DNA of 55,513 bases from Sphingomonadales bacterium (GTDB lineage: Bacteria; Pseudomonadota; Alphaproteobacteria; Sphingomonadales; Sphingomonadaceae), in assembly GCA_028870315.1 (NCBI GenBank), contig JAGWPW010000039.1, forward strand, positions 1-55,513. The letters are read 5' to 3'. Positions 46,992 through 55,513 of the stretch are shown here, one piece after another. The translations under genes were made by a program, and so were the position numbers. The notes under the pieces were generated by a model. That model was not told the DNA's origin. It saw only the letters and a program-made list of their open reading frames with translations, and searched no databases. The stretch's first letter is position 1. Every line of letters begins with the position of its first letter.

Positions 46992-47022
46992 ATGGCGTGT
47001 GCACCATGATCCAGCGCCACAT

Positions 47023-47215
47023 TCAGCCTTGATCGCGATGCCCGGTTGCATGAGCCAGGGCATCACGAAAATGGCAGCGCCGGATTACGCTCAATAACGC
47101 CATGTCGATCACTCCAGAATCCCCCGACCAGGCAGCCAGGGGGAAGGTCAGAACATGGGTCACTTCTCAGTGGAAATTGCGCCCCTCCCGGGTCAGCTCT
47201 CAGTGGAAATCAACA
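47023..47215 (-). mobile_element. Left-end remnant of an IS21-family element with istA stub
   Basis: Reading leftward, the element begins TGTTGATTTCCACTGAGAG at 47215. It contains a 21-bp repeat twice, GGGTCAGCTCTCAGTGGAAA (47190-47210) and GGGTCACTTCTCAGTGGAAA (47157-47177), as IS21-type ends do. An ATG at 47103 then starts MALLSVIRRCHFRDAL, the typical opening of IstA transposases, which breaks off after ~16 residues (stop at 47023). istB and the right end are absent. A 9-bp inverted repeat (GGCTGAATG, 46986-47028) at the inner edge may belong to the tetR terminator. Confidence 0.6.
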
Positions 47216-47394
47216 GTCGGCCAATCACCCTCGATCGGGCGATCCAGGAAGGCGTGGACGCGCTCGTCGAGTTCCTCGCACAGCCGGCTGACCTGGCTCT
47301 TGGAGATGCCGTCCATGCCGAGCGCCTTTACCAGATCATCAACAGAGCGCGTCGAGATCCCCTGGATAGCCCATAAACTATATCGACGCGCCAT
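47216..47394 (-). pseudogene. IS256-family transposase fragment
   Basis: The minus-strand frame reads IQGISTRSVDDLVKALGM, then SGISKSQVSRL-like (DGISKSQVSRLCEELDERV) and RPIEGDWP, a conserved internal segment of Mutator/IS256 transposases. About 50 of ~400 residues remain. It is cut at 47215/47216 exactly where the IS21-type end begins, so that element probably inserted here. The 85 bases to the right, before marR, hold nothing recognisable. Confidence 0.75.
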
Positions 47395-47479
47395 CCTCTA
47401 CAGCGCGAAATAGCCTGATCAAGGCGTATCCACCATTTCTCTCCCGTAAATCATCTGGATCAGACCGCCCGAACCCCGC

Positions 47480-47977
47480 TCAGGTGTCGGTGAAGCGCGA
47501 TTTGCGGCCGGGGCCGGCGAGATCGTTGAGCATGCGGATACACAGCGCAATGTCTTCGGGGCGATAGCCGGCCAGCCGGTCGTTGATGCGATCGGCAAAC
47601 AGGTGCCCCAACTCCTGGTTGAACGCCAGTCCGGCCGCGGTGAGTTCGAGCCGGATTTGCCGGCGGTCGCTGGTATCGGGATACGAAGTCACCAGCCCGG
47701 CGCGGGTGAGCGGCGCGATCTCTTCGGCAACGGTGCTGCGCCCGATCCGCCACAGCCGGGCGATGTCCGACTGGACGCGGACGCGACCAGTAGCGACGAG
47801 CCCGATGATCCACACACCGCGCGGACCAAGCGCGAAACGCTTGCGAAACGCCTCGACCGGTGCGAACAATTCCTTGCGCGCGACGCTGATCGCTTCGGCA
47901 AAGCGGCCGATGTCGGCCCAGTCGATCTCGAAGCCGGGGTTGGCGTTGGCGGCGGGCGCGATGCCGGTGCGGGGCAT
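47480..47977 (-). CDS. MarR-family transcriptional regulator
   Basis: A 165-residue winged-helix protein with the MarR core: VQSDIARLWRIGRSTVAEEI (recognition helix), LTRAGLVTSYPDTSDRRQIR (wing) and helical ends for dimerisation. It is the last gene of an eight-gene operon, six bases after the HiPIP-like gene. MarR proteins usually repress neighbouring genes and release DNA on ligand or oxidant binding. The tandem palindromes in the operon promoter at 54390-54427 are its likely sites. Confidence 0.88.
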   Translation of the reverse strand: MPRTGIAPAANANPGFEIDWADIGRFAEAISVARKELFAPVEAFRKRFALGPRGVWIIGLVATGRVRVQSDIARLWRIGRSTVAEEIAPLTRAGLVTSYPDTSDRRQIRLELTAAGLAFNQELGHLFADRINDRLAGYRPEDIALCIRMLNDLAGPGRKSRFTDT

Positions 47978-47982
47978 GACGA

Positions 47983-48291
47983 CTAGCCCGGTTTCGCGGA
48001 TTTGGCCGCGAAGGAATCGCAAAGCCCGGTCGCCGCAACCGGGCCGCCGAGCAGCGCGCAGGTGCCGCAGCCCTCGCTTGACGCGGCGAAGAAATTGCAC
48101 AGCCCGCAATGCTTCGCCGGATCGGCCGAGACATCGGCATAGCCGACCGCGCGGCGGCGCGATTTCTGGCTCAGCGACAGGCTGGCGGGATCGTAGCATG
48201 CGGCGGGAGGTGCGGCGGCGAGCCGGGCGGCGACGAGCCCCGCGCCAAGCGCCGAGGCAAGACCCAGGAAATGGCGGCGATCACCGGTCAT
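47983..48291 (-). CDS. High-potential iron-sulfur-like protein, Tat-exported
   Basis: A 102-residue protein with a twin-arginine signal (DRRHFLGLASALGAG) and a Cys-rich C-terminal half: HCGLCNFF, then GCGTCALLGGPVAATG and LCDSF. This CxxC...C...C spacing matches small HiPIPs, periplasmic 4Fe-4S electron carriers, with one extra Cys (GCGTC). Its ATG overlaps the VOC gene stop. In this operon it could pass electrons to or from the c-type haem proteins. Confidence 0.82.
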   Translation of the reverse strand: MTGDRRHFLGLASALGAGLVAARLAAAPPAACYDPASLSLSQKSRRRAVGYADVSADPAKHCGLCNFFAASSEGCGTCALLGGPVAATGLCDSFAAKSAKPG

Positions 48292-48767
48292 GGGGCCTTC
48301 TCCGCCGGGGCGTGGCGCTCGACCATTTCATAGCGATAACCGTCAGGATCGGTCGCGGTCATCATGCGATAGCCCATGGCAACGTCGCGGATCGCGCCGG
48401 GCGTGAAGCCCGCCGCGCGCAACCGCGCGGCGGTTTCCGCGAGATCGGGGATGCGCAGCACGGTGCGGTCATAGCCATGCGCCTGCACTACCGCCAGCGG
48501 TGCGGCCCCGGGCCGCGTATCGGCAAGGAGGATGATCCCCGGGCTCGACGGATCGCCACCGGCGGTGAGGATCGTCTCGCGCCGCTCGGGCGGCCCCATT
48601 CGCATGCCGACCTTGAAACCCAGCCCATCGACATAGAAGCGCAGCGACCGTGCGACATCTCCCACCCACAGCGCCGGGCCGATGAGCGAGGGCGCCGCGG
48701 GTGCCTGCGCCGCCACTGGCGAGGCAAGCGCAAGCGCGGCGGCGATGGCGAGCAGCGCGGCCCTCAT
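48288..48767 (-). CDS. Secreted VOC (glyoxalase/dioxygenase-fold) protein
   Basis: A 159-residue protein with a Sec signal (AALLAIAAALALASPVAAQ) and a single VOC domain (SLRFYVDGLGFKVGMRMG...TATDPDGYRYEMVER). The terminal Glu in YRYEMVE is a typical metal ligand. Export is unusual, since most VOC proteins are cytoplasmic. Four-base overlaps join it to the genes on both sides. Its role could be binding or isomerising a small periplasmic substrate. Confidence 0.87.
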   Translation of the reverse strand: MRAALLAIAAALALASPVAAQAPAAPSLIGPALWVGDVARSLRFYVDGLGFKVGMRMGPPERRETILTAGGDPSSPGIILLADTRPGAAPLAVVQAHGYDRTVLRIPDLAETAARLRAAGFTPGAIRDVAMGYRMMTATDPDGYRYEMVERHAPAEKAP

Positions 48768-50107
48768 ACCAGGATCTCGGTCAGCGCCTTGTTCGTCTCC
48801 ATGCTTTTCGTTCCCCAGCGATCGACCGAAACCCCCATCGCCTGCTGCATCGTCAGCCCCACCCGGCTGACCGGCGTGCCCTGCCCATCGACATAAAGCC
48901 CGGTCCGGACCCGGCCGCCACCGCTGCCCGCGGTCATTATCGGGATGTTGTCGATGGTATGGAACTTGGCGAATTCGGTTTCCGAATGGGCGATGACCAG
49001 CGTGTTGTCGAGCAGCGTGCGATCGCCCTCCTTCACGCTGTCGAGCGCCTTCACGAAGGACACCCAGGCCTCCATGATCCGCGTCAGGAAATAGGTCGCC
49101 TGCGGCTGATAGCCGAGCTTGTTGTCGAGCACTTCCTCGTGGGTCAGCTGGTGATGCGTCACCGTGCTGCCGATCCGGGTGAGCGAGGAGGCGCCGTTGT
49201 TGAACATCATGTTGAACACCCGCGTCTGGTCGCAGGCCAGCGCCATGACCAGCAGGTCGGTCATCAACTGGTGGTTGAGCATCACCGTCTCGATCTCGCC
49301 GTTGACCGGCAGGTCGGCCGAGACCTTGTGCGGCACCACGCAGGCCTTGAGCGGCTCGGGCTTGGTCAGCTCGACATCGAGCTGGTTTTCGAGCTGGCGG
49401 ATCGCGGTGTAATATTGATCGAGCTTCTGCTTGTCCGCCGCGCCCACCGCGGCATCGAGCGCGTGGCGCTGCTCGGTCACCGCCGACAGCACCGAGCGGC
49501 GCGCCATCGTCACCGGATCGGGGGTGAAGCTGGCGCTGTTCGGGTCCTGGAAGCCGGCGCCGAACACGCGGGTATAAAGCCCGGCGGGCGTCGCCTCGGA
49601 GGAATTGAGATTGCCGCCACCGCGCCCCGACAGCGAATTGCGCGCATCGCCGATCGCCGAAACCTCAAGGCTGCGAAAGCGCGTGCGCGTACCGATGCGA
49701 TCGCCGATCGTCACATCGAAGCTCTCGCCCGGCAGGCCGCGGTCGGCGGTCAGCGCGATCCCGGTGCGCACCGCCGCGCCGCCCGAAATATGCGGCAGGT
49801 TGGGCGCACCATCGAGCAGCACGTTGAAATTGCCCAGGATATTGATCTTCTTCTGGAAATCCTTGATCGGCGCGAGTTCGGGCTTCAATTCGTAATCAGC
49901 GCCGGCCGCGCTCGGGAACCAGCGGTTGGGATTGACCCCCAGCCCCCAGAACCAGGTACCGAAACGCACCGGCGGCGCCGCGCCCGTTGCCGCCATGGCG
50001 GTGCCGTTGCCGTCGAGGAAGACGTCGAGCAAGGGCACGCCGACGGTGATCGCGCTGCCCTTGAGAAAGCCGGTGAGCGCGGTTCTGCGGCTGAGATCAA
50101 AGGCCAT
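48764..50107 (-). CDS. DUF1552 family protein, Tat-type signal
   Basis: A 447-residue protein beginning MAFDLSRRTALTGFLKG, a twin-arginine-like signal, followed by the DUF1552 domain (FGTWFWGLGVNPNRWFP; HHQLTHEEVLDNK; LVIAHSETEFAKFHTIDNIP). DUF1552 proteins almost always accompany DUF1592 proteins, best known in Planctomycetes, Verrucomicrobia and Myxobacteria. Their activity is undefined; the C-terminal part recalls the alkaline-phosphatase-like DUF1501 group. 86 bases separate it from the DUF1592 gene. Confidence 0.88.
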   Translation of the reverse strand: MAFDLSRRTALTGFLKGSAITVGVPLLDVFLDGNGTAMAATGAAPPVRFGTWFWGLGVNPNRWFPSAAGADYELKPELAPIKDFQKKINILGNFNVLLDGAPNLPHISGGAAVRTGIALTADRGLPGESFDVTIGDRIGTRTRFRSLEVSAIGDARNSLSGRGGGNLNSSEATPAGLYTRVFGAGFQDPNSASFTPDPVTMARRSVLSAVTEQRHALDAAVGAADKQKLDQYYTAIRQLENQLDVELTKPEPLKACVVPHKVSADLPVNGEIETVMLNHQLMTDLLVMALACDQTRVFNMMFNNGASSLTRIGSTVTHHQLTHEEVLDNKLGYQPQATYFLTRIMEAWVSFVKALDSVKEGDRTLLDNTLVIAHSETEFAKFHTIDNIPIMTAGSGGGRVRTGLYVDGQGTPVSRVGLTMQQAMGVSVDRWGTKSMETNKALTEILV

Positions 50108-50150
50108 GGTCGTTTCCCTTCGCTGGAATGAGTGGGAACATTCGCGGGGC

Positions 50151-50168
50151 ATGGCCCCTTGCGCTTCC
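50151..50168 (-). repeat. Copy of the rplT-terminator motif in the DUF1592-DUF1552 gap
   Basis: On the minus strand GGAAGCGCAAGGGGCCAT is identical to 2648-2665, and GCCCC follows to make a small hairpin. Inside the operon it may cause partial termination or RNA processing. Confidence 0.5.
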
Positions 50169-50193
50169 GTTGCTGTCGTCGTGGCGCGCCATC

Positions 50194-51888
50194 TCACCGC
50201 TCCAGCAGGCTGAGATGCGTCGGCGCGCCCAATGGCGGCTCCTTCACCTCCCACACCTGCGGCTGGGTCACGGCATCGAGGAACAGCGCCCGGATGCGAT
50301 AGCCGCTGGCGGCGAAATGCGAATCGAGGCTTTCGACCATGGCGTCGGCATCGTCGCTCGGCTGGCCGCGGACATATTCGAGCGCGCGCGAAGCGACGCA
50401 CTGGCTGGCATCGGGGCTGGCGGCAAGCAGCTTGCCGAGCCCCTCGGCACCGCTGAAGTCCTGCTTGTCGAGCTTGCCGGCAGGGTCGATCACCGCGCCA
50501 TTCTCGGTCGTGCGCCACCCGCCGATGCCGTCGAAGCGTTCGAGGCTGAGCCCGAGCGGATCGGTGAGCCGGTGGCAGCCCGCGCAATTCTCGTCGGTCA
50601 TATGCGCGGCAAGCCGCACGCGCGCGGTCGGCATGGCACGATTTTTGACGTCCTGCACGGCGGTGAAATTGACGTTGCCGGGCGGGTTGGGCACCGGCTG
50701 GCAGAGCAGCAGCTCGCGGATCGCGCGGCCGCGCAGCGTCGGCGAGCTGCGCCCGGTCTGCGAATAGATGGCAAGGAAGCCCGCCTGGCCGAGCAACCCC
50801 GCGCGATCCGCACCGGGAGCGAACTGATAGGGCTCCCAGCCTTTGTCCTTGTGCACCGGCACCTGGTAAAGCCCGCCGAGCGCGCGGGTCATGAAGGTGT
50901 GGCCGGTGAGGAACAGCTGGCGGTAGTCGCCGTCGCGGGTCAACAGGTGGTCGGTGATCGTGCGCAGCATCTGCTCGGGCATCGCCGCTGCGACTTCGCT
51001 GTTGAAATAGGGGAAGATGATCGGATCCTTCGACAGCGAATCGAAGCGTTCGAACAGCAGCATGTCGGCGAAGAAGGCGCGGATTCCGTCCTCGAAGCGC
51101 GGCGATTTCACCATTTTCGCCGCGGTCGCGGCCAGCACCGCGGGATCGTGGAGCCTGCCCGATGCCGCGCTGGCGAGCAGCGCCGCATCAGGGGTGGTGT
51201 TCCACAAGGTGTAGCTGAGCCGGCTGGCGCGGCTGTAATCATCGAGCACCAGCACCCCGGGATGCTGCGGGTCGGGCTGCGCGGTCTCGACGATATAGAG
51301 GAATTGCGGGCTTTCCAGCATCGCCGCCAGGCCCAGTTCGAGGCCCTTGTCGAAGCTGTGCGCGGTCCGCGCCGCGGCGCCCGCCATGGCGACATAACCA
51401 TTGCCCTCGGCATCGGTCAGCGGCCGGCGGAACAGATAGCGGCCGAGCGGCAGCAGCGCCGCGCGCGCGCAGCTTTCGTCGGGCGCGGCCTCGTCGTGCG
51501 GCTGGCAGGGGAGGAACAGCGCGCGGTGCTTGTCGTCGAAGACCTGCGCGGCGACGCCGCGGCCGATCGCGTCGAGTTGTTCGAGCCCCGACGGCGAGAC
51601 CGAGGAATCGCGCGCGCCGCTGGCGATAAGTTCATGCACCGGGCGCACGATCGGCTCGAAGCGCCCCGCGACCCTGATGTCCGGCCCGAAGATGTCGGCG
51701 ATGGTGTTGCGATACTGCGCCTCGGTCAGCCGGCGCAGCCCGGTGATGCGCGGGCCGGCAAAGCGCGCGGCGGTCGATGCGACATCCCCGCCGGCACCAG
51801 CGGCGCCGTGCGCGGACAGCGCCGCTACCAGCACCGCGCCTGCACCCAGCGCGACAAGGCCGCGCGGCAAAAGGCCGGATCGTGTCAT
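50194..51888 (-). CDS. DUF1592-family haem-binding protein (DUF1595/1592/1588/1585)
   Basis: A 564-residue exported protein: N-terminal signal, then RRLTEAQYRNTIADIFG, a DUF1595/1592 middle (FRRPLTDAEGNGYV; SRLSYTLWNTTPD), DUF1588 with NCAGCHRLTDPLGLSLERFD, a CxxCH c-type haem site, and a DUF1585 end (ALEYVRGQPSDDADAMV). Elsewhere this family is paired with DUF1552 and annotated as cytochrome-like with unknown substrate. Its ATG overlaps the upstream stop by four bases. It lacks the separate N-terminal cytochrome domain seen in some planctomycete proteins. Confidence 0.88.
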   Translation of the reverse strand: MTRSGLLPRGLVALGAGAVLVAALSAHGAAGAGGDVASTAARFAGPRITGLRRLTEAQYRNTIADIFGPDIRVAGRFEPIVRPVHELIASGARDSSVSPSGLEQLDAIGRGVAAQVFDDKHRALFLPCQPHDEAAPDESCARAALLPLGRYLFRRPLTDAEGNGYVAMAGAAARTAHSFDKGLELGLAAMLESPQFLYIVETAQPDPQHPGVLVLDDYSRASRLSYTLWNTTPDAALLASAASGRLHDPAVLAATAAKMVKSPRFEDGIRAFFADMLLFERFDSLSKDPIIFPYFNSEVAAAMPEQMLRTITDHLLTRDGDYRQLFLTGHTFMTRALGGLYQVPVHKDKGWEPYQFAPGADRAGLLGQAGFLAIYSQTGRSSPTLRGRAIRELLLCQPVPNPPGNVNFTAVQDVKNRAMPTARVRLAAHMTDENCAGCHRLTDPLGLSLERFDGIGGWRTTENGAVIDPAGKLDKQDFSGAEGLGKLLAASPDASQCVASRALEYVRGQPSDDADAMVESLDSHFAASGYRIRALFLDAVTQPQVWEVKEPPLGAPTHLSLLER

Positions 51889-53093
51889 TTGAGCGCGGTC
51901 TCCGTGCTGGTTGGCAGGTCGTTGATGAAGGCGGGCACCGCCTCGATTCGCATCGCGCTCGAAATCGCGGTGCATTGCCCGGTTCTGGGATCGCGCGCGC
52001 CATCGGCGTATTTCCTGAGCCCGGCGAGCTGCGCCGAGCAGTCGATCCCCGCGACCAGCGCCGATCCCGCCCCGCCGAGCGAGGTGCTGACGATGACGTC
52101 GAACAGCGGGCGATAGCCGCCGACGAGCCCGCGCAGGCTGCCATCGGGCTCGAAGGCGAGCCGCAGCCGGCCCTTGAGGTAATGATATTGGGTGCGGTTG
52201 CCGCGAATGTCGCGCGCCCCGCCCTGCCCCCAGGTTTCGGCAAGACGGATATCGGCGGGATCGGTGGTCAGCACGCCATCGCGGATATGGCCCTTGAGCA
52301 CATTGCGATGGCGCGCACCCTTGTCGGCGACGGTGAAGCTGAGCCCGCGCAGGAAATTGCCCTTGTTGTCGATTTCCGGGCGATCGGCGGTGTTGGCGTA
52401 GATCACCTCGACATCATCGTCCTTCACCAGGCTGTGGACGTTCTTCAGCAGGATCACCTGCGTCCATTCGCCCGAAGTGTGGAACTGCTTCATGCCGGTG
52501 AGCGAGTCGCCGCCACTGCCATCGTTGCCGCGCAGTTCAAGCTCGCAGCCCATTGCGCGGTATTCCTGGTTGTCGATGCCCGAAAGCCCGTCGGGCGAGA
52601 CGAACTTGCCATGCGCGCAGCCGTCCTTGCCGCCGCCGCCGCTGGCATCGCCATCGAGATCGAGCCCATAGGCGAACTTGCTTTCGACCGGCGGGAACAG
52701 CGCGTGCTGGAAGCGATCGGGCTGCGAGCAGATATTGGTGCCGCCGGCGCCGAAGGCATAGGCGTGCCACAGATTGGTCAGTTCCTTCTCGTTCTCCTTG
52801 CGCCGCAGCCGTGCAGCCTCGTCGGCGGTGAGCGTGCGCAGATATTCCTCGCGCAGCCGCGGCGCGGTGCCGTGCGGGCAGCTGTCCATGCCCGGAACGA
52901 TCGTCGGCACGAAATTCTCGACGACAAAGCCCATCACCCCCGAGGGCGGCGGCGCGGGCAATCGCGCCGGGGGCAGACCCTGCGCGCGCGCCGGGCTCGC
53001 CCCCGCGTGCCCGCGCAGAAGGCCCGCGCCGCTCAGCGCGAGCGCGCCGGCGATCACGACACCGCCAAGGCCCAGCCTGCCCGGTCTGATCAT
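51885..53093 (-). CDS. Secreted protein of unknown function in the redox operon
   Basis: A 402-residue exported protein (signal ~1-37, ending SPARAQG) I cannot assign. Visible features are a Pro-rich linker, five or more conserved-looking Cys (SCPHG, NICSQPD, GCAHGKF, MGCELEL, GIDCSAQ, GQCTAIS) that could form disulfides, and DGDASGGGGKDG, possibly a Ca-binding or flexible loop. There is no CxxCH. Overlaps on both sides (ATGA) tie it to the cytochrome genes, so it is probably a structural or substrate-binding partner. Confidence 0.8.
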   Translation of the reverse strand: MIRPGRLGLGGVVIAGALALSGAGLLRGHAGASPARAQGLPPARLPAPPPSGVMGFVVENFVPTIVPGMDSCPHGTAPRLREEYLRTLTADEAARLRRKENEKELTNLWHAYAFGAGGTNICSQPDRFQHALFPPVESKFAYGLDLDGDASGGGGKDGCAHGKFVSPDGLSGIDNQEYRAMGCELELRGNDGSGGDSLTGMKQFHTSGEWTQVILLKNVHSLVKDDDVEVIYANTADRPEIDNKGNFLRGLSFTVADKGARHRNVLKGHIRDGVLTTDPADIRLAETWGQGGARDIRGNRTQYHYLKGRLRLAFEPDGSLRGLVGGYRPLFDVIVSTSLGGAGSALVAGIDCSAQLAGLRKYADGARDPRTGQCTAISSAMRIEAVPAFINDLPTSTETALK

Positions 53094-53905
53094 GGTTTCA
53101 TCGTCCTTGCATGCGGCGGGATCGCCTCGGGCGTATCGGCATCGGCGATGAACACCGGCCGGCCCTGATAGGTCCATTGCGCGACGTCGCCGCCCGCAGC
53201 GACGCGCCAGGGGCCGATCGCGGCGGCCGCCATGCCGGCGCGATAGGGCCGCCAGCCGGCGCAATCCTTGCCGCAATCGCCGGTGAACAGCACCCGCCCC
53301 TTCGCATCGGCAAGCACATAGTCGCCGTCGATGACGATCGGGCGGACATCGGGCGGCGCCACCGGCTGCGGCGGCGGCGCGATGAATTTGAGCGTGTTCC
53401 AGATCTTGCCGTCGGCGCCCTCGTAGCGGGTGGAGCGCGCATCGCCGCGCCGCACGAACACCATGTGCCAGCCCTTGTAGACCCATTGCGGCCCCTGCGG
53501 CCCGGCGATGATCGTCCAGTCGGGCGCGTCCTGCGGCTGGCTGTAGAAGCCCGCGGGCACCGCCTGCGGCAGGCTGCGTCCCTCATAGCCGTGTGGGAAG
53601 GCGATGTTGGGCTTCGCGTCCTTGCCGGCGAGCACCGGCTCCCACGCCTTCGCGCAGTCGCCCTGGCAGTAGAGCGCGGGATCGGGGCCGGCGCGCAGCA
53701 GGATCCGCATGTCCATGCCATAGAGCAGGCGCCCCTTCGCATCGACGTAATAGGCCCTGCCGTCGATCCGGGCGACATGGATGCCGTCAGGAAATTGCAG
53801 GGTGCGTGCCGCCGGGATCGGCAGATCGGCGGGCTGCGCCCAGGCGCCATGCGGCAGGGCAAGCGCGAGCGCCGCGGTCCAGCGCCAGATGCGGTGCGCG
53901 GTCAT
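53090..53905 (-). CDS. COG4315-type secreted repeat protein
   Basis: A 271-residue exported protein (signal ending HGAWAQ) with two copies of the repeat found in COG4315 lipoproteins: YYVDAKGRLLYGMD with CQGDCAKAWEPV, and YVLADAKGRVLFTGD with CGKDCAGWRPY. Each repeat has a CxxxC pair. Related proteins occur with cytochromes and are proposed to assist redox or metal chemistry, but no activity is proven. Joined by four-base overlaps to its neighbours. Confidence 0.83.
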   Translation of the reverse strand: MTAHRIWRWTAALALALPHGAWAQPADLPIPAARTLQFPDGIHVARIDGRAYYVDAKGRLLYGMDMRILLRAGPDPALYCQGDCAKAWEPVLAGKDAKPNIAFPHGYEGRSLPQAVPAGFYSQPQDAPDWTIIAGPQGPQWVYKGWHMVFVRRGDARSTRYEGADGKIWNTLKFIAPPPQPVAPPDVRPIVIDGDYVLADAKGRVLFTGDCGKDCAGWRPYRAGMAAAAIGPWRVAAGGDVAQWTYQGRPVFIADADTPEAIPPHARTMKP

Positions 53906-54348
53906 GATGTCCGCGGCACGCGGAAGCTGTCGTGGCAGCCCTTGCAGGTGCCGCCCAGATCGGCCATCGCCGCGCGCATCGCCGCGCCATCGCCACCGGC
54001 CGCAACCTTCTGGAACCTGGCGGCGGCGGCAACAAAGCTGTCCATGTCCGCCTTGAACCGGGCGGGCTGCGTCCAGATTTCGGCTTTCGCCGAGGTTTTC
54101 GCGCCCGATTCCGCGCCGCTCCCCGCAGGGAACCAGCCGGACATCTGGCTCGCGGCATTCCTGACTTGCCGCGCCGACTGCTGGATGAGGATCGTCTGCG
54201 GCTCATCGCCGGCAAGCCCGTCGCGGATCGCCTTGAACGCCGCGCCGAGTTCGCGCAGCCCGTCGATGCGTGTCTTGACCGCATCCGCCGGCGCCGCCAC
54301 GACCGCGCTCGCCCACAACAGACAGGCCAAGCCTACCAGCTTTCGCAC
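53902..54348 (-). CDS. Cytochrome c556/c'-like protein
   Basis: First gene of the operon: a 148-residue four-helix cytochrome with a signal peptide (KLVGLACLLWASAVVAAPA) and the haem site CKGCHDSFR at the C-terminus, as in cytochrome c' and c556. The start is GTG 54348, preceded by GGGGGAG. These proteins carry electrons or bind small gases in the periplasm. The putative promoter and two palindromic operators lie about 50 bases upstream. Confidence 0.9.
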   Translation of the reverse strand: MRKLVGLACLLWASAVVAAPADAVKTRIDGLRELGAAFKAIRDGLAGDEPQTILIQQSARQVRNAASQMSGWFPAGSGAESGAKTSAKAEIWTQPARFKADMDSFVAAAARFQKVAAGGDGAAMRAAMADLGGTCKGCHDSFRVPRTS

Positions 54349-54389
54349 CCTTTTCTCCCCCGGAAAATCGTCACCGACAAGGCAAACTC

Positions 54390-54434
54390 GTTCGAGTCTC
54401 GAACGTATAATAGTTCGTGACTCGAACGTGTCAA
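54390..54434 (-). promoter_or_regulatory. Operon promoter with two tandem 15-bp palindromic operators
   Basis: On the minus strand TTGACA (54434-54429), a 16-base spacer and TATTAT (54412-54407) form a good sigma-70-type promoter. GTTCGAGTCTCGAAC (54390-54404), a perfect 7-bp inverted repeat, overlaps the expected start point. GTTCGTGACTCGAAC (54413-54427) fills the spacer. Their centres are 23 bases apart. This arrangement strongly suggests repression, most simply by the operon's own MarR protein. Confidence 0.75.
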
Positions 54435-54508
54435 TCTGACAGACAGCCGGCCGCAAAGCCGGGCCACGATGGTACAAGGCGCTTTCCGCACGTCGGTTTT
54501 GCAAATTC

Positions 54509-54522
54509 TATCGTAATCGATA
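54509..54522. promoter_or_regulatory. Small palindrome before cytochrome b561 gene
   Basis: TATCGTAATCGATA has perfect 5-bp arms and lies in a locally AT-rich stretch 66 bases before the b561 gene. It may be an operator or part of that gene's promoter. Confidence 0.3.
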
Positions 54523-54587
54523 AAACAATTCCGGGAAAATTAAGAAACCATCGGTCATTCTCACCTCGGCGATCCAGGACATAAGTT

Positions 54588-55247
54588 GTGACAGCAAAAC
54601 ATGGAATCAGGGTTTGGGATGGACCGACACGTCTGTTTCATTGGTTGCTTGTCGGGCTGTTCGCCATCTGCTGGTGGACCGCCCGGAACGACGAGATGGC
54701 ACCGCACCTTATTTCCGGGATGCTGCTTCTGGCGCTGCTCGTCTTCCGGTTGATCTGGGGGTTGATCGGCGGCAGCACAGCGCGCTTCCATCATTTTCTC
54801 GCGCCGCCGCGCGCGGTGCTCGCCTATCTCGGTGGCAGGGGCAAGCCGGCGCGCGCCGGGCATAATCCGCTCGGCGGCTACAGCGTCGTTGCGATCCTTG
54901 GCCTGCTTGCCCTTCAGGTCGCGAGCGGAACCGTGGCGGTCGATGTCGACGGGATCGAATCGGGACCACTCAGCGCTTTCGTCAGCTTCGATCACGGACG
55001 CCTCGCGGCCGCGGCGCATCACCAGCTGTTCAACCTGCTGCTCGTACTGATCGCGCTGCACATCGCCGCGATTCTTTTCTATCTGGCGCGCGGCCGCGAT
55101 CTGCTGTCGCCGATGATAACCGGCCGCGACCGCCAGCTTCCGCCCGACAGCGCCGCGCTCGCATCAGTGCCGCGCTGGCGCTTTGTGCTGGCAGCGGTGC
55201 TCGCGGGCGGGCTCGGCTGGTGGATCGGCCATGGCCTGCGGTTCTGA
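54588..55247 (+). CDS. Cytochrome b561-type membrane protein
   Basis: A 219-residue di-haem b-type cytochrome with four or five membrane helices and His residues in RLFHWLLVGLFA, APHLISGMLLL, HHQLFNLLLVLIALHIAAIL. It belongs to the b561/Ni-Fe-hydrogenase b-subunit family that moves electrons between quinol and periplasmic c-type partners. GTG start with AGGA upstream. Diverging from the cytochrome c556 operon, it is a natural membrane link for that module, though this is inference. Confidence 0.9.
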   Translation: MTAKHGIRVWDGPTRLFHWLLVGLFAICWWTARNDEMAPHLISGMLLLALLVFRLIWGLIGGSTARFHHFLAPPRAVLAYLGGRGKPARAGHNPLGGYSVVAILGLLALQVASGTVAVDVDGIESGPLSAFVSFDHGRLAAAAHHQLFNLLLVLIALHIAAILFYLARGRDLLSPMITGRDRQLPPDSAALASVPRWRFVLAAVLAGGLGWWIGHGLRF

Positions 55248-55255
55248 GGCCGCGC

Positions 55256-55513
55256 TCAGACTAGAAGCTCGCGACTGTTGACCAGCAGCGAGACGGCATC
55301 GCCGCCGGCCAATCCGCGGCGCTGCCGCCATTCGCCGGTCGGGCGGAAACCCAGCTTTTCGACGAAGCGGCGGGCGGCGGGCATTTCGGCTGAATGCAGC
55401 GCATCGAGCGCGCGGTGCCCAAGCGTGCGGGCAAGCCGCAGCACCGCACGTCCCGCCTCGGTGGCAAAGCCCTGGCCCGCATGTTCAGGGGCGATCCAGG
55501 CGACGAGCTCGGC
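55256..55513 (-). CDS. GNAT-family N-acetyltransferase, C-terminal part
   Basis: The frame is open to the window edge; the 5' part of the gene lies beyond 55513. The 85 visible residues include the acetyl-CoA loop (EHAGQGFATEAGRAVL) and ALHSAEMPAARRFVEKLGFR, the usual GNAT ending (RimJ/RimL-like). The substrate is unknown. It converges on the cytochrome b561 gene with eight bases between. Confidence 0.85.
   Translation of the reverse strand, partial: AELVAWIAPEHAGQGFATEAGRAVLRLARTLGHRALDALHSAEMPAARRFVEKLGFRPTGEWRQRRGLAGGDAVSLLVNSRELLV

What the first reader, a model, noticed from the sequence alone, without database searches (positions are those of the whole stretch)
47480..54348. Eight-gene MarR-ended envelope redox operon with DUF1552/DUF1592 core
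Cytochrome c556-like, COG4315 repeat protein, unknown secreted protein, CxxCH DUF1592, Tat DUF1552, secreted VOC, HiPIP-like and MarR genes are packed on one strand; five junctions are four-base overlaps and only one gap exceeds 10 bases. Seven products carry export signals and at least three carry haem or Fe-S motifs. DUF1552/DUF1592 pairs are known mainly from Planctomycetes and similar groups and have no settled activity. Combining them with a HiPIP, VOC protein and MarR regulator in a sphingomonad suggests an uncharacterised periplasmic redox pathway.
Basis: partly seen in the sequence, partly recalled or inferred. Interest (0 to 1): 0.78.

Follow-up and report, generated by a model that had tools for sequence, protein, structure and literature searches.

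The report
Conserved envelope electron-transfer operon, function unknown
Eight tightly packed bacterial genes, plus a ninth beside them, form a conserved and jointly controlled set of exported electron-carrying proteins that probably oxidises some compound just outside the cell membrane; nobody knows which compound, but the control switch and the partner genes found here make it testable.

Summary
Observation confirmed: eight minus-strand genes (47480-54348), five 4-base overlaps, gaps of 86 and 5 bases. The only sigma70-like promoter found in 8.5 kb precedes the first gene, with a palindrome exactly between -35 and -10. In the 3.13 Mb genome GTTCGNNNNNCGAAC occurs at two places, both in this promoter. 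The genes are neighbours in relatives: in 47 of 47 usable loci (46 chosen by the unknown protein) it lies near DUF1592 and DUF1552; 9 of 47 hold all eight families. The set survives reordering, and MarR lineage matches operator half-site. A ninth gene, cytochrome b561 (54588-55247, divergent), recurs. The unknown protein (no Pfam, no PDB relative) accompanies a DUF1552 branch whose name motif HxxSHH has become Hxx[TS]H[ED]E (45 of 47); one Sphingobium plasmid keeps the two about 200 kb apart. Canonical DUF1552 loci lack it but 9 of 12 carry the same cytochrome c'/b561 pair. Best reading: a MarR-repressed periplasmic oxidation module passing electrons to b561. Substrate unknown: Sphingobium relatives lie by steroid-saponin hydrolase genes, but a 40-genome test found no steroid link. 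New variant of an uncharacterised kind.

The parts
54429..54434 (-). -35 box TTGACA
   Evidence: the only sigma70-like site found in 47000-55513, 11 of 12 matches, 16-base spacer (shuffles give 0.9 sites of the minimum quality, 9 of 12)
54413..54427 (.). operator palindrome GTTCGTGACTCGAAC, filling the -35/-10 spacer
   Evidence: one of the only two GTTCGNNNNNCGAAC places in the 3.13 Mb assembly; a similar repeat is seen in the same position in the 7 loci first inspected, weaker in two (L025, L026)
54407..54412 (-). -10 box TATTAT
54390..54404 (.). second operator palindrome GTTCGAGTCTCGAAC, 23 bases downstream
   Evidence: L023 also has two palindromes, 25 bases apart
53902..54348 (-). cytochrome c' (c556-like), exported, haem site CKGCH, GTG start
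   Evidence: Pfam Cytochrom_C_2 97.9 bits; CxxCH in all 37 rows compared, window twice
53090..53905 (-). secreted COG4315-like protein
   Evidence: Lipoprotein_15 14.3 bits, below cut-off; the family HMM also finds the L016 protein that scores 83.9 bits
51885..53093 (-). unknown secreted protein, usual third member of the core
   Evidence: no Pfam/NCBIfam match, no PDB relative; 16-sequence family alignment A1
50194..51888 (-). DUF1587-1595-1592-1588-1585 mono-haem protein, CAGCH
   Evidence: five Pfam domains above cut-off; CxxCH, H429, C128, C140 invariant in 13 sequences of both branches
48764..50107 (-). DUF1552 protein, Tat-like leader, motif HQLTHEE in place of HxxSHH
   Evidence: PF07586 169.4 bits; motif comparison; H106 H319 H323 H383 invariant in 15 sequences
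48288..48767 (-). secreted VOC-fold protein
   Evidence: Glyoxalase 44.5 bits; no histidine conserved at 90% in 29 rows
47983..48291 (-). HiPIP-like [4Fe-4S] carrier with Tat-like leader
   Evidence: PF01355 21.3 bits, cut-off 22; C62 C65 C75 C78 C91 in all 26 rows, window twice
47480..47977 (-). MarR-type regulator
   Evidence: HTH_27 35.2 bits; lineage-matched operators
54588..55247 (+). cytochrome b561, divergent gene; recurrent ninth member of the set
   Evidence: Ni_hydr_CYTB 73.4 bits; within 8 kb of DUF1552 in 12 of 47 loci; 5 His conserved in 13 rows; follows c' in 9 of 12 canonical DUF1552 loci

Best explanation
The eight genes are one MarR-controlled transcription unit for a periplasmic oxidation module, with the divergent cytochrome b561 gene as its membrane end. 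Shown by comparison: the set travels together, shares one operator-bearing promoter, and has a usual three-protein core (unknown protein, DUF1592 mono-haem protein, DUF1552). Inferred: the Tat-exported DUF1552, probably metal-binding through four invariant histidines, acts with the unknown protein on the substrate; electrons pass to the DUF1592 haem, then through HiPIP and/or cytochrome c' to cytochrome b561 and the quinone pool; the VOC and COG4315-like proteins bind substrate or intermediates. MarR represses the promoter by sitting between -35 and -10 and lets go when it binds a small ligand derived from the substrate. The substrate is not known; a hydrophobic ring compound of plant or aromatic origin is the best guess.
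For: Neighbourhood: 47 of 47 usable loci have unknown protein, DUF1592 and DUF1552 within 8 kb (46 of them chosen by the unknown protein); 23 of 23 close loci keep the COG4315-like gene (c' 19, VOC 17, HiPIP 16, MarR 16, b561 9); 9 of 47 hold all eight families, 4 of 47 all nine, in changing order. In the other direction, 10 of 10 variant DUF1552 loci of the order sample have the unknown protein beside them (partial in L057). Regulation: one promoter; operator pattern at 2 places in 3.13 Mb, both here; a related pattern in 19 genomes gives 8 places in 8 genomes, all at this operon by coordinates, reversed control 0; where a second gene group stands before the COG4315-like gene (L025, L026, L112) a palindrome of this kind precedes both groups; the MarR branch of window, L023 and L024 pairs with TTCG/CGAA half-sites, the 9 other MarR proteins with a strict site with TTCA or TTCT. 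Electron path: CxxCH in c' and DUF1592, invariant Cys in the HiPIP-like protein, five His in b561; 9 of 12 canonical DUF1592-DUF1552 loci run on to ankyrin-c'-b561; PQQ dehydrogenases with a cytochrome domain beside L014 and L015. Ligand-type MarR: no cysteine conserved at 90% or more in 17 rows.
Against: No activity, transcript or protein data. Two structure predictions failed (mean pLDDT 43 and 34), so the DUF1552 fold and metal site are untested here. The unknown protein is not an obligate neighbour: on the TomTYG65 plasmid DUF1592-DUF1552-c'-b561 stands without it and a lone copy lies about 200 kb away. 31 of 47 loci have no MarR within 8 kb, and 4 of those (L102, L117, and before the COG4315-like gene in L025, L026) still carry the site; four MarR loci (L100, L101, L104, L115) lack the strict site. 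The pattern was first drawn by eye from seven loci; in the 40 others it is upstream of the first gene in 7 of 11 with MarR and 2 of 29 without, unadjusted for relatedness. The reversed control pattern in the own genome has 4 places against 2, so it is the position, not the number, that speaks. 11 of 19 genomes, the own one included, have no match to the pattern. b561 is absent near DUF1552 in 35 of 47 loci. The order of electron carriers is guesswork.
Confidence: 0.55

Rival explanations
1. A stress-defence operon: c', HiPIP and b561 scavenge electrons or reactive species in the envelope, and MarR senses oxidants.
For: Cytochromes c' and b561 have such roles elsewhere (recalled); RND efflux genes lie within about 10 kb of the Sphingobium modules; MarR regulators often answer oxidants (recalled).
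Against: No cysteine conserved at 90% or more in 17 MarR rows, so no OhrR-like thiol switch; patchy distribution (29 of 195 genus genomes) fits a catabolic trait better; TonB receptors within 8 kb of DUF1552 in 12 of 47 loci.
Confidence: 0.15
2. Carbohydrate oxidation, as suggested for planctomycete-type PSCyt/PSD genes in Verrucomicrobia: the module oxidises sugars or oligosaccharides in the periplasm.
For: PMC5615132 (passages read) reports carbohydrate-binding modules in some PSCyt genes and sulfatase neighbours; saponin glycosidases near Sphingobium modules; glycerate and hydroxypyruvate genes near L165.
Against: No carbohydrate-binding domain matched in the nine window proteins scanned; neighbours in four close loci are Rieske oxygenases, F420-type enzymes and SDRs.
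Confidence: 0.15
3. Steroid or triterpenoid (saponin-derived) oxidation in the envelope.
For: In the plasmid collection the 12 Sphingobium records with the unknown protein are the same 12 Sphingobium records that carry the GH106 saponin-rhamnosidase homologue; in TomTYG72 the module is about 12 kb from a GH3-GH106-hydrolase-GH78 cluster whose order matches SpGH3-1, SpGH106-1, SpGH78-1 of PMC10653915, and about 8 kb on the other side lies a KshA-like Rieske gene; in TomTYG65 the lone unknown protein is next to a GH39 gene and close to a 3-beta-HSD-like gene.
Against: Those strains are mostly close relatives, so this is few independent events; the main text of PMC10653915 has no word beginning 'cytochrome' (its supplements were not seen); across 40 hand-chosen genomes KshA_C is as common without the module (12 of 19) as with it (13 of 21).
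Confidence: 0.15
4. Hitch-hiking genes: an operon-like cluster held together by selection on parts only, with no common pathway.
For: Accessory members come and go; MarR is absent from all 24 distant loci, b561 from 21 and HiPIP from 15 of them; the unknown protein can stand alone.
Against: Retention through reordering, a shared operator in front of separated parts, and its rarity elsewhere in the genomes searched.
Confidence: 0.05

Closest known systems
PSCyt3/PSD genes beside an unknown-gene partner in Verrucomicrobia and Planctomycetes (PMC5615132 and PMC2754498, passages read; that the partner is DUF1552 is recalled)
   Same: Same DUF1592/1588/1585/1587/1595 domains with one CxxCH, next to a Tat-exported DUF1552 protein; no activity known
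   Different: Here the DUF1552 motif is HxxTHEE, a third family nearly always accompanies it, and dedicated carriers (c', HiPIP-like, b561), VOC, COG4315-like protein and a MarR regulator are added
Canonical sphingomonad cluster DUF1592-DUF1552-ankyrin-c'-b561 (L059, L061, L140-L146)
   Same: DUF1592-DUF1552 pair with the same cytochrome c' and b561 families downstream
   Different: DUF1552 keeps HxxSHH; ankyrin protein instead of the unknown protein; no HiPIP, COG4315-like protein or MarR of this set found in those stretches
Cytochrome c556/cytochrome b561 pairs of proteobacteria (recalled)
   Same: Periplasmic four-helix c-type cytochrome with a b561 membrane partner
   Different: Here tied to a DUF1552/DUF1592 core
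MarR-repressed catabolic operons with a palindrome over the promoter (recalled)
   Same: MarR gene inside the operon, inverted repeat between -35 and -10
   Different: Target is an envelope electron-transfer set; ligand unknown

Membership tests
DUF1552 (PF07586, 'HXXSHH') | Profile score above the curated cut-off | tested here: met
   169.4 bits against 30
DUF1552 (PF07586, 'HXXSHH') | HxxSHH motif that names the family | tested here: not met
   Window HQLTHEE. Of 26 matches listed: HxxSHH in 12 (L031-L042), Hxx[TS]H[ED]E in 10 (L046-L055), and of the other 4 L044 has HxxTHD, L043 HxxSHN (seen in L148), L045 none, L056 is a fragment. Over the 47 loci the variant motif is in 45; L122 and L123 lack it. 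Filed as a variant branch
PSD/PSCyt3 mono-haem proteins (DUF1587/1595/1592/1588/1585) | All five domains and a CxxCH haem site | tested here: met
High-potential iron-sulfur proteins (PF01355) | Profile score above cut-off | tested here: not met
   21.3 bits, cut-off 22; own-genome PF01355 search finds nothing at E 0.001; hence 'HiPIP-like'
High-potential iron-sulfur proteins (PF01355) | Four cluster cysteines | tested here: met
   C62, C65, C78, C91 (and C75) in all 26 rows, window twice; the cluster itself is not testable here
COG4315 / Lipoprotein_15 | Profile score above cut-off | tested here: not met
   14.3 bits against 24.4 in the window; 83.9 for the L016 relative
Cytochrome c' (PF01322) | Profile score and C-terminal CxxCH | tested here: met
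   97.9 bits; C135, C138, H139 in all 37 rows, window twice
MarR regulators | Winged helix profile | tested here: inconclusive
   HTH_27 35.2 (cut-off 22.2) met, MarR PF01047 22.1 (cut-off 24.6) not met
MarR regulators | Binds an inverted repeat at its own operon | not testable with these tools
   Only indirect: operator position and lineage matching
Metal-dependent VOC enzymes (glyoxalase I, extradiol dioxygenase) | Conserved His/Glu metal ligands | tested here: not met
   Only Y45, D140 and E147 reach 90% among the C/H/M/Y/W/D/E positions scored, 29 rows

The most novel reading that the evidence does not exclude
A previously undescribed class of periplasmic oxidoreductase: the variant DUF1552 with the unknown secreted protein forms a catalytic pair that oxidises hydrophobic ring compounds (aromatic, terpenoid or steroid) outside the cytoplasm, feeding electrons through the planctomycete-type haem protein, HiPIP and c' to b561, under a substrate-sensing MarR switch dedicated to this one promoter.
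Probability: 0.25. Interest if true: 0.82.

Novelty: new variant of a known kind. Interest (0 to 1): 0.62.

Why it matters
DUF1552/DUF1592 genes occur in several phyla with no activity that I could find. This operon gives them an electron-exit route, a third partner protein and a regulator that seems to serve one promoter. A MarR ligand screen on this promoter could reveal the inducer and hence the substrate class. The window's genome assembly has one DUF1552 match, so a deletion should not be masked by a paralogue.

Tried and rejected
Structure: AlphaFold2 of the unknown protein (6 sequences) gave pLDDT 43.4 and of DUF1552 (7 sequences) 33.6; no fold search was made because such models would give meaningless matches. 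PDB sequence and profile searches found no credible relative of DUF1552, DUF1592, the unknown or the COG4315-like protein; what was listed had E 0.31 or worse.

Steroid reading tested and weakened: KshA_C in 13 of 21 module genomes and 12 of 19 others; GH106 of any kind in 16 of 21 and 10 of 19, but most GH106 hits score near 1000 bits against 227 for the saponin type. The 40 handles were chosen by hand from those seen.

A TTCGG-CCGAA palindrome inside DUF1552 (48974; also L023, L024, L028) was set aside: it lies in the stretch that encodes the conserved SETE. An OhrR-like redox switch was rejected (no conserved cysteine). A metal-dependent VOC enzyme was rejected. In the 86-base gap the scan listed no promoter and no terminator on the operon's strand.

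A mended claim: I first took the unknown protein for an obligate neighbour of variant DUF1552; the late check of TomTYG65 showed an exception, and L122/L123 lack the variant motif.

Dropped or excluded before counts: L019, L109 and L132 (no DUF1552 in a cut or short contig) left out of the 47; L095-L099 and L116 are the same contigs as L025, L026, L023, L024, L027 and L028 and were not counted twice; fragments in G816 and G927 were not fetched; the G385 hit (with stops, L022) was not counted; the plasmid loci L164-L171 are not among the 47. 'Close' and 'distant' (23 and 24) is my own grouping, by score to the unknown-protein profile.
Full report
Observation. The window holds eight minus-strand genes at 47480-54348 with the spacing described. 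Pfam confirms cytochrome c', the five PSD/PSCyt3 domains, DUF1552 and VOC; HiPIP and COG4315 labels fall below cut-off, and the unknown product matches nothing. A cytochrome b561 gene lies divergently at 54588-55247.

Is it one system? The unknown protein was used as a marker. In an even sample of the order 8 of 396 genomes match it (one of these, G385, is weak and holds stops); in the genus 29 of 195 (one, G927, weak); in the phylum 2 of 398 including the own genome. A genome-contig scan gave 6 loci, five titled Novosphingobium and one Sphingomonadales. Neighbourhoods were read with family HMMs. Of 50 loci, three had no DUF1552 in a short or cut contig; in the other 47 the unknown protein, DUF1592 and DUF1552 are within 8 kb. 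That is partly by design: 46 were taken because they hold the unknown protein (L057 came through DUF1552). Within 8 kb: COG4315-like 29, c' 32, VOC 28, HiPIP 25, MarR 16, b561 12, TonB receptor 12 of 47. Of the 23 close loci, 20 have at least three of the five accessory families, against 6 of 24 distant ones. The order differs, for example c'-HiPIP-b561-MarR-COG4315-core in L112, yet the genes remain together. One complete nine-gene set (L103) has the length and coordinates of the Novosphingobium sp. RL4 plasmid NZ_CP141945.1. The own genome has two cytochrome c' matches, one of them here.

Two branches of DUF1552. A PF07586 search of 396 genomes of the order found 23 with a match and listed 26 matches. 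Twelve loci have HxxSHH; ten, including the window, have Hxx[TS]H[ED]E; of the remaining four, L044 has HxxTHD, L043 HxxSHN, L045 gave no motif and L056 is a fragment. Over the 47 loci the variant motif is present in 45, not in L122 and L123. H319 and H323 of the motif, and H106 and H383, are invariant in 15 sequences of both branches. The unknown protein was found beside all ten variant loci of that search (in L057 only a partial match) and in none of the 12 canonical loci, read as stretches of 18-20 kb. Nine of those 12 instead run DUF1592-DUF1552-ankyrin-c'-b561. Thus c'/b561 is a shared electron exit of both branches; this is the main ground for the electron path. Outside the order, G469 (L094) has the variant motif with HiPIP, unknown protein, c' and VOC; five other matches of the phylum sample (398 genomes, 8 with a match) show other motifs or none and no unknown protein. 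One exception to the pairing was found: on the Sphingobium TomTYG65 plasmid DUF1592-DUF1552-c'-b561 has no unknown protein beside it, and a single copy lies about 200 kb away.

Regulation. Only one sigma70-like promoter was found in 47000-55513: TTGACA-16-TATTAT at 54434-54407, with a palindrome filling the spacer and a second 23 bases on. The seven close loci whose upstream region was first inspected have such a repeat in the same position, two of them (L025, L026) in a weaker form. In the own genome GTTCGNNNNNCGAAC occurs at two places, both here; the pattern read backwards has four, so the position and not the number is telling. The related pattern TTGANNNNTTCNANNNTTGAA in 19 genomes gave 8 places in 8 genomes (none in the own one), and by coordinates all eight lie at the operon; the reversed control gave none. 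A strict site regex is upstream of the first gene in 12 of 16 loci with MarR and 2 of 31 without; it was drawn by eye from seven loci, and in the 40 others the counts are 7 of 11 and 2 of 29. In L025, L026 and L112, where another gene group stands before the COG4315-like gene, a site of this kind precedes both groups. The MarR proteins of window, L023 and L024 form a branch with support 1.000 and have TTCG/CGAA half-sites; the nine others with a strict site have A or T at that position. This is indirect evidence that this MarR reads this operator.

Cofactors. In one search, where the window protein is counted twice in each family, CxxCH is in all 37 cytochrome c' and all 47 DUF1592 rows, five HiPIP cysteines in all 26, five b561 histidines in all 13. 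VOC metal ligands are not conserved.

Substrate. In L013, L028, L110 and L111 the operon lies between an F420-type LLM oxidoreductase and a cofD homologue on one side and a Rieske oxygenase on the other. L014 and L015 adjoin PQQ dehydrogenases with a cytochrome domain. In PLSDB the unknown protein is found in 12 Sphingobium plasmid records and one Novosphingobium record. The same 12 Sphingobium records hold a homologue of the GH106 steroid-saponin rhamnosidase (that search also found one Sphingomonas and one other Novosphingobium record without the unknown protein). In TomTYG72 TonB-unknown-DUF1592-DUF1552-c'-b561 is about 12 kb from GH3-GH106-hydrolase-GH78, an order that matches SpGH3-1, SpGH106-1 and SpGH78-1 of PMC10653915 by locus-tag number (outline, sections 6, 9 and 12 and search passages read). 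A KshA-like Rieske gene is about 8 kb beyond b561. In TomTYG65 the lone unknown-protein gene is next to a GH39 gene and about 3 kb from a 3-beta-HSD-like gene. I saw no mention of the module in the parts of that paper read. S. herbicidovorans pMSHV has the same layout, with the unknown gene annotated as two overlapping frames. Against a general steroid role, KshA_C is no commoner with the module (13 of 21) than without (12 of 19). I therefore leave the substrate open.

Literature. Searches for DUF1552 with DUF1592 (none), DUF1552 (2 papers), DUF1592/1588/1585 (2), DUF1501/1553/1549/PSCyt (2), PSCyt phrases and HXXSHH (8, several of them unrelated), COG4315/SCO0930 (13, mostly unrelated), HiPIP with b561, MarR and Novosphingobium (none) and Novosphingobium with F420 and Rieske (2) showed no function for the pair; apart from PMC10653915, only listings and the passages were seen. 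The library holds open-licence papers only.

Verdict. A real, conserved, jointly regulated module; a new variant of an uncharacterised kind. Shown: anatomy, conservation, branch-linked partner, operator. Inferred: catalysis, electron order, ligand, substrate.

Noticed in passing
window 47050-47440: Just beyond the operon's 3' end the minus strand encodes a fragment that reads like a transposase end (MDGISKSQVSRLCEELDERV...; IS256-like is recalled, not tested), so the operon may border a mobile element scar.
   Followed up: no
L013 1258-8449; L028 4628-7689: L013 holds F420 cofactor genes (cofGH, cofD, cofC) and an F420-type LLM oxidoreductase directly upstream of the operon; L028, L110 and L111 have cofD and LLM homologues in the same place; unusual for sphingomonads as far as I recall.
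   Followed up: partly
L059, L061, L140-L146: Canonical DUF1592-DUF1552 clusters in this order carry an ankyrin-repeat protein followed by cytochrome c' and b561 in 9 of 12 loci.
   Followed up: partly
L171 12193-13443 (Sphingobium TomTYG65 plasmid): A lone copy of the unknown protein away from any DUF1552, between a LysR-type regulator and a GH39 beta-xylosidase gene, near a GMC oxidoreductase and a 3-beta-HSD-like gene.
   Followed up: partly
L166 11980-13325 (S. herbicidovorans pMSHV): The unknown protein's gene is annotated as two overlapping frames, in a strain that PMC10653915 reports to give putative alpha-tomatine intermediates; that paper links this to another missing gene.
   Followed up: no
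L028 9890-12761: Both the unknown gene and the DUF1592 gene are interrupted by frame changes in this assembly; could be assembly error or decay.
   Followed up: no
L102 (G926), L015 (G192): Tandem or paired copies of the unknown protein; G849 and G926 have four and five matches genome-wide.
   Followed up: no
window 50108-50193: The only long intergenic gap (86 bases) contains a GGGGCATGGCCCC hairpin seen by eye, without a T run; it may tune DUF1592/DUF1552 levels.
   Followed up: no
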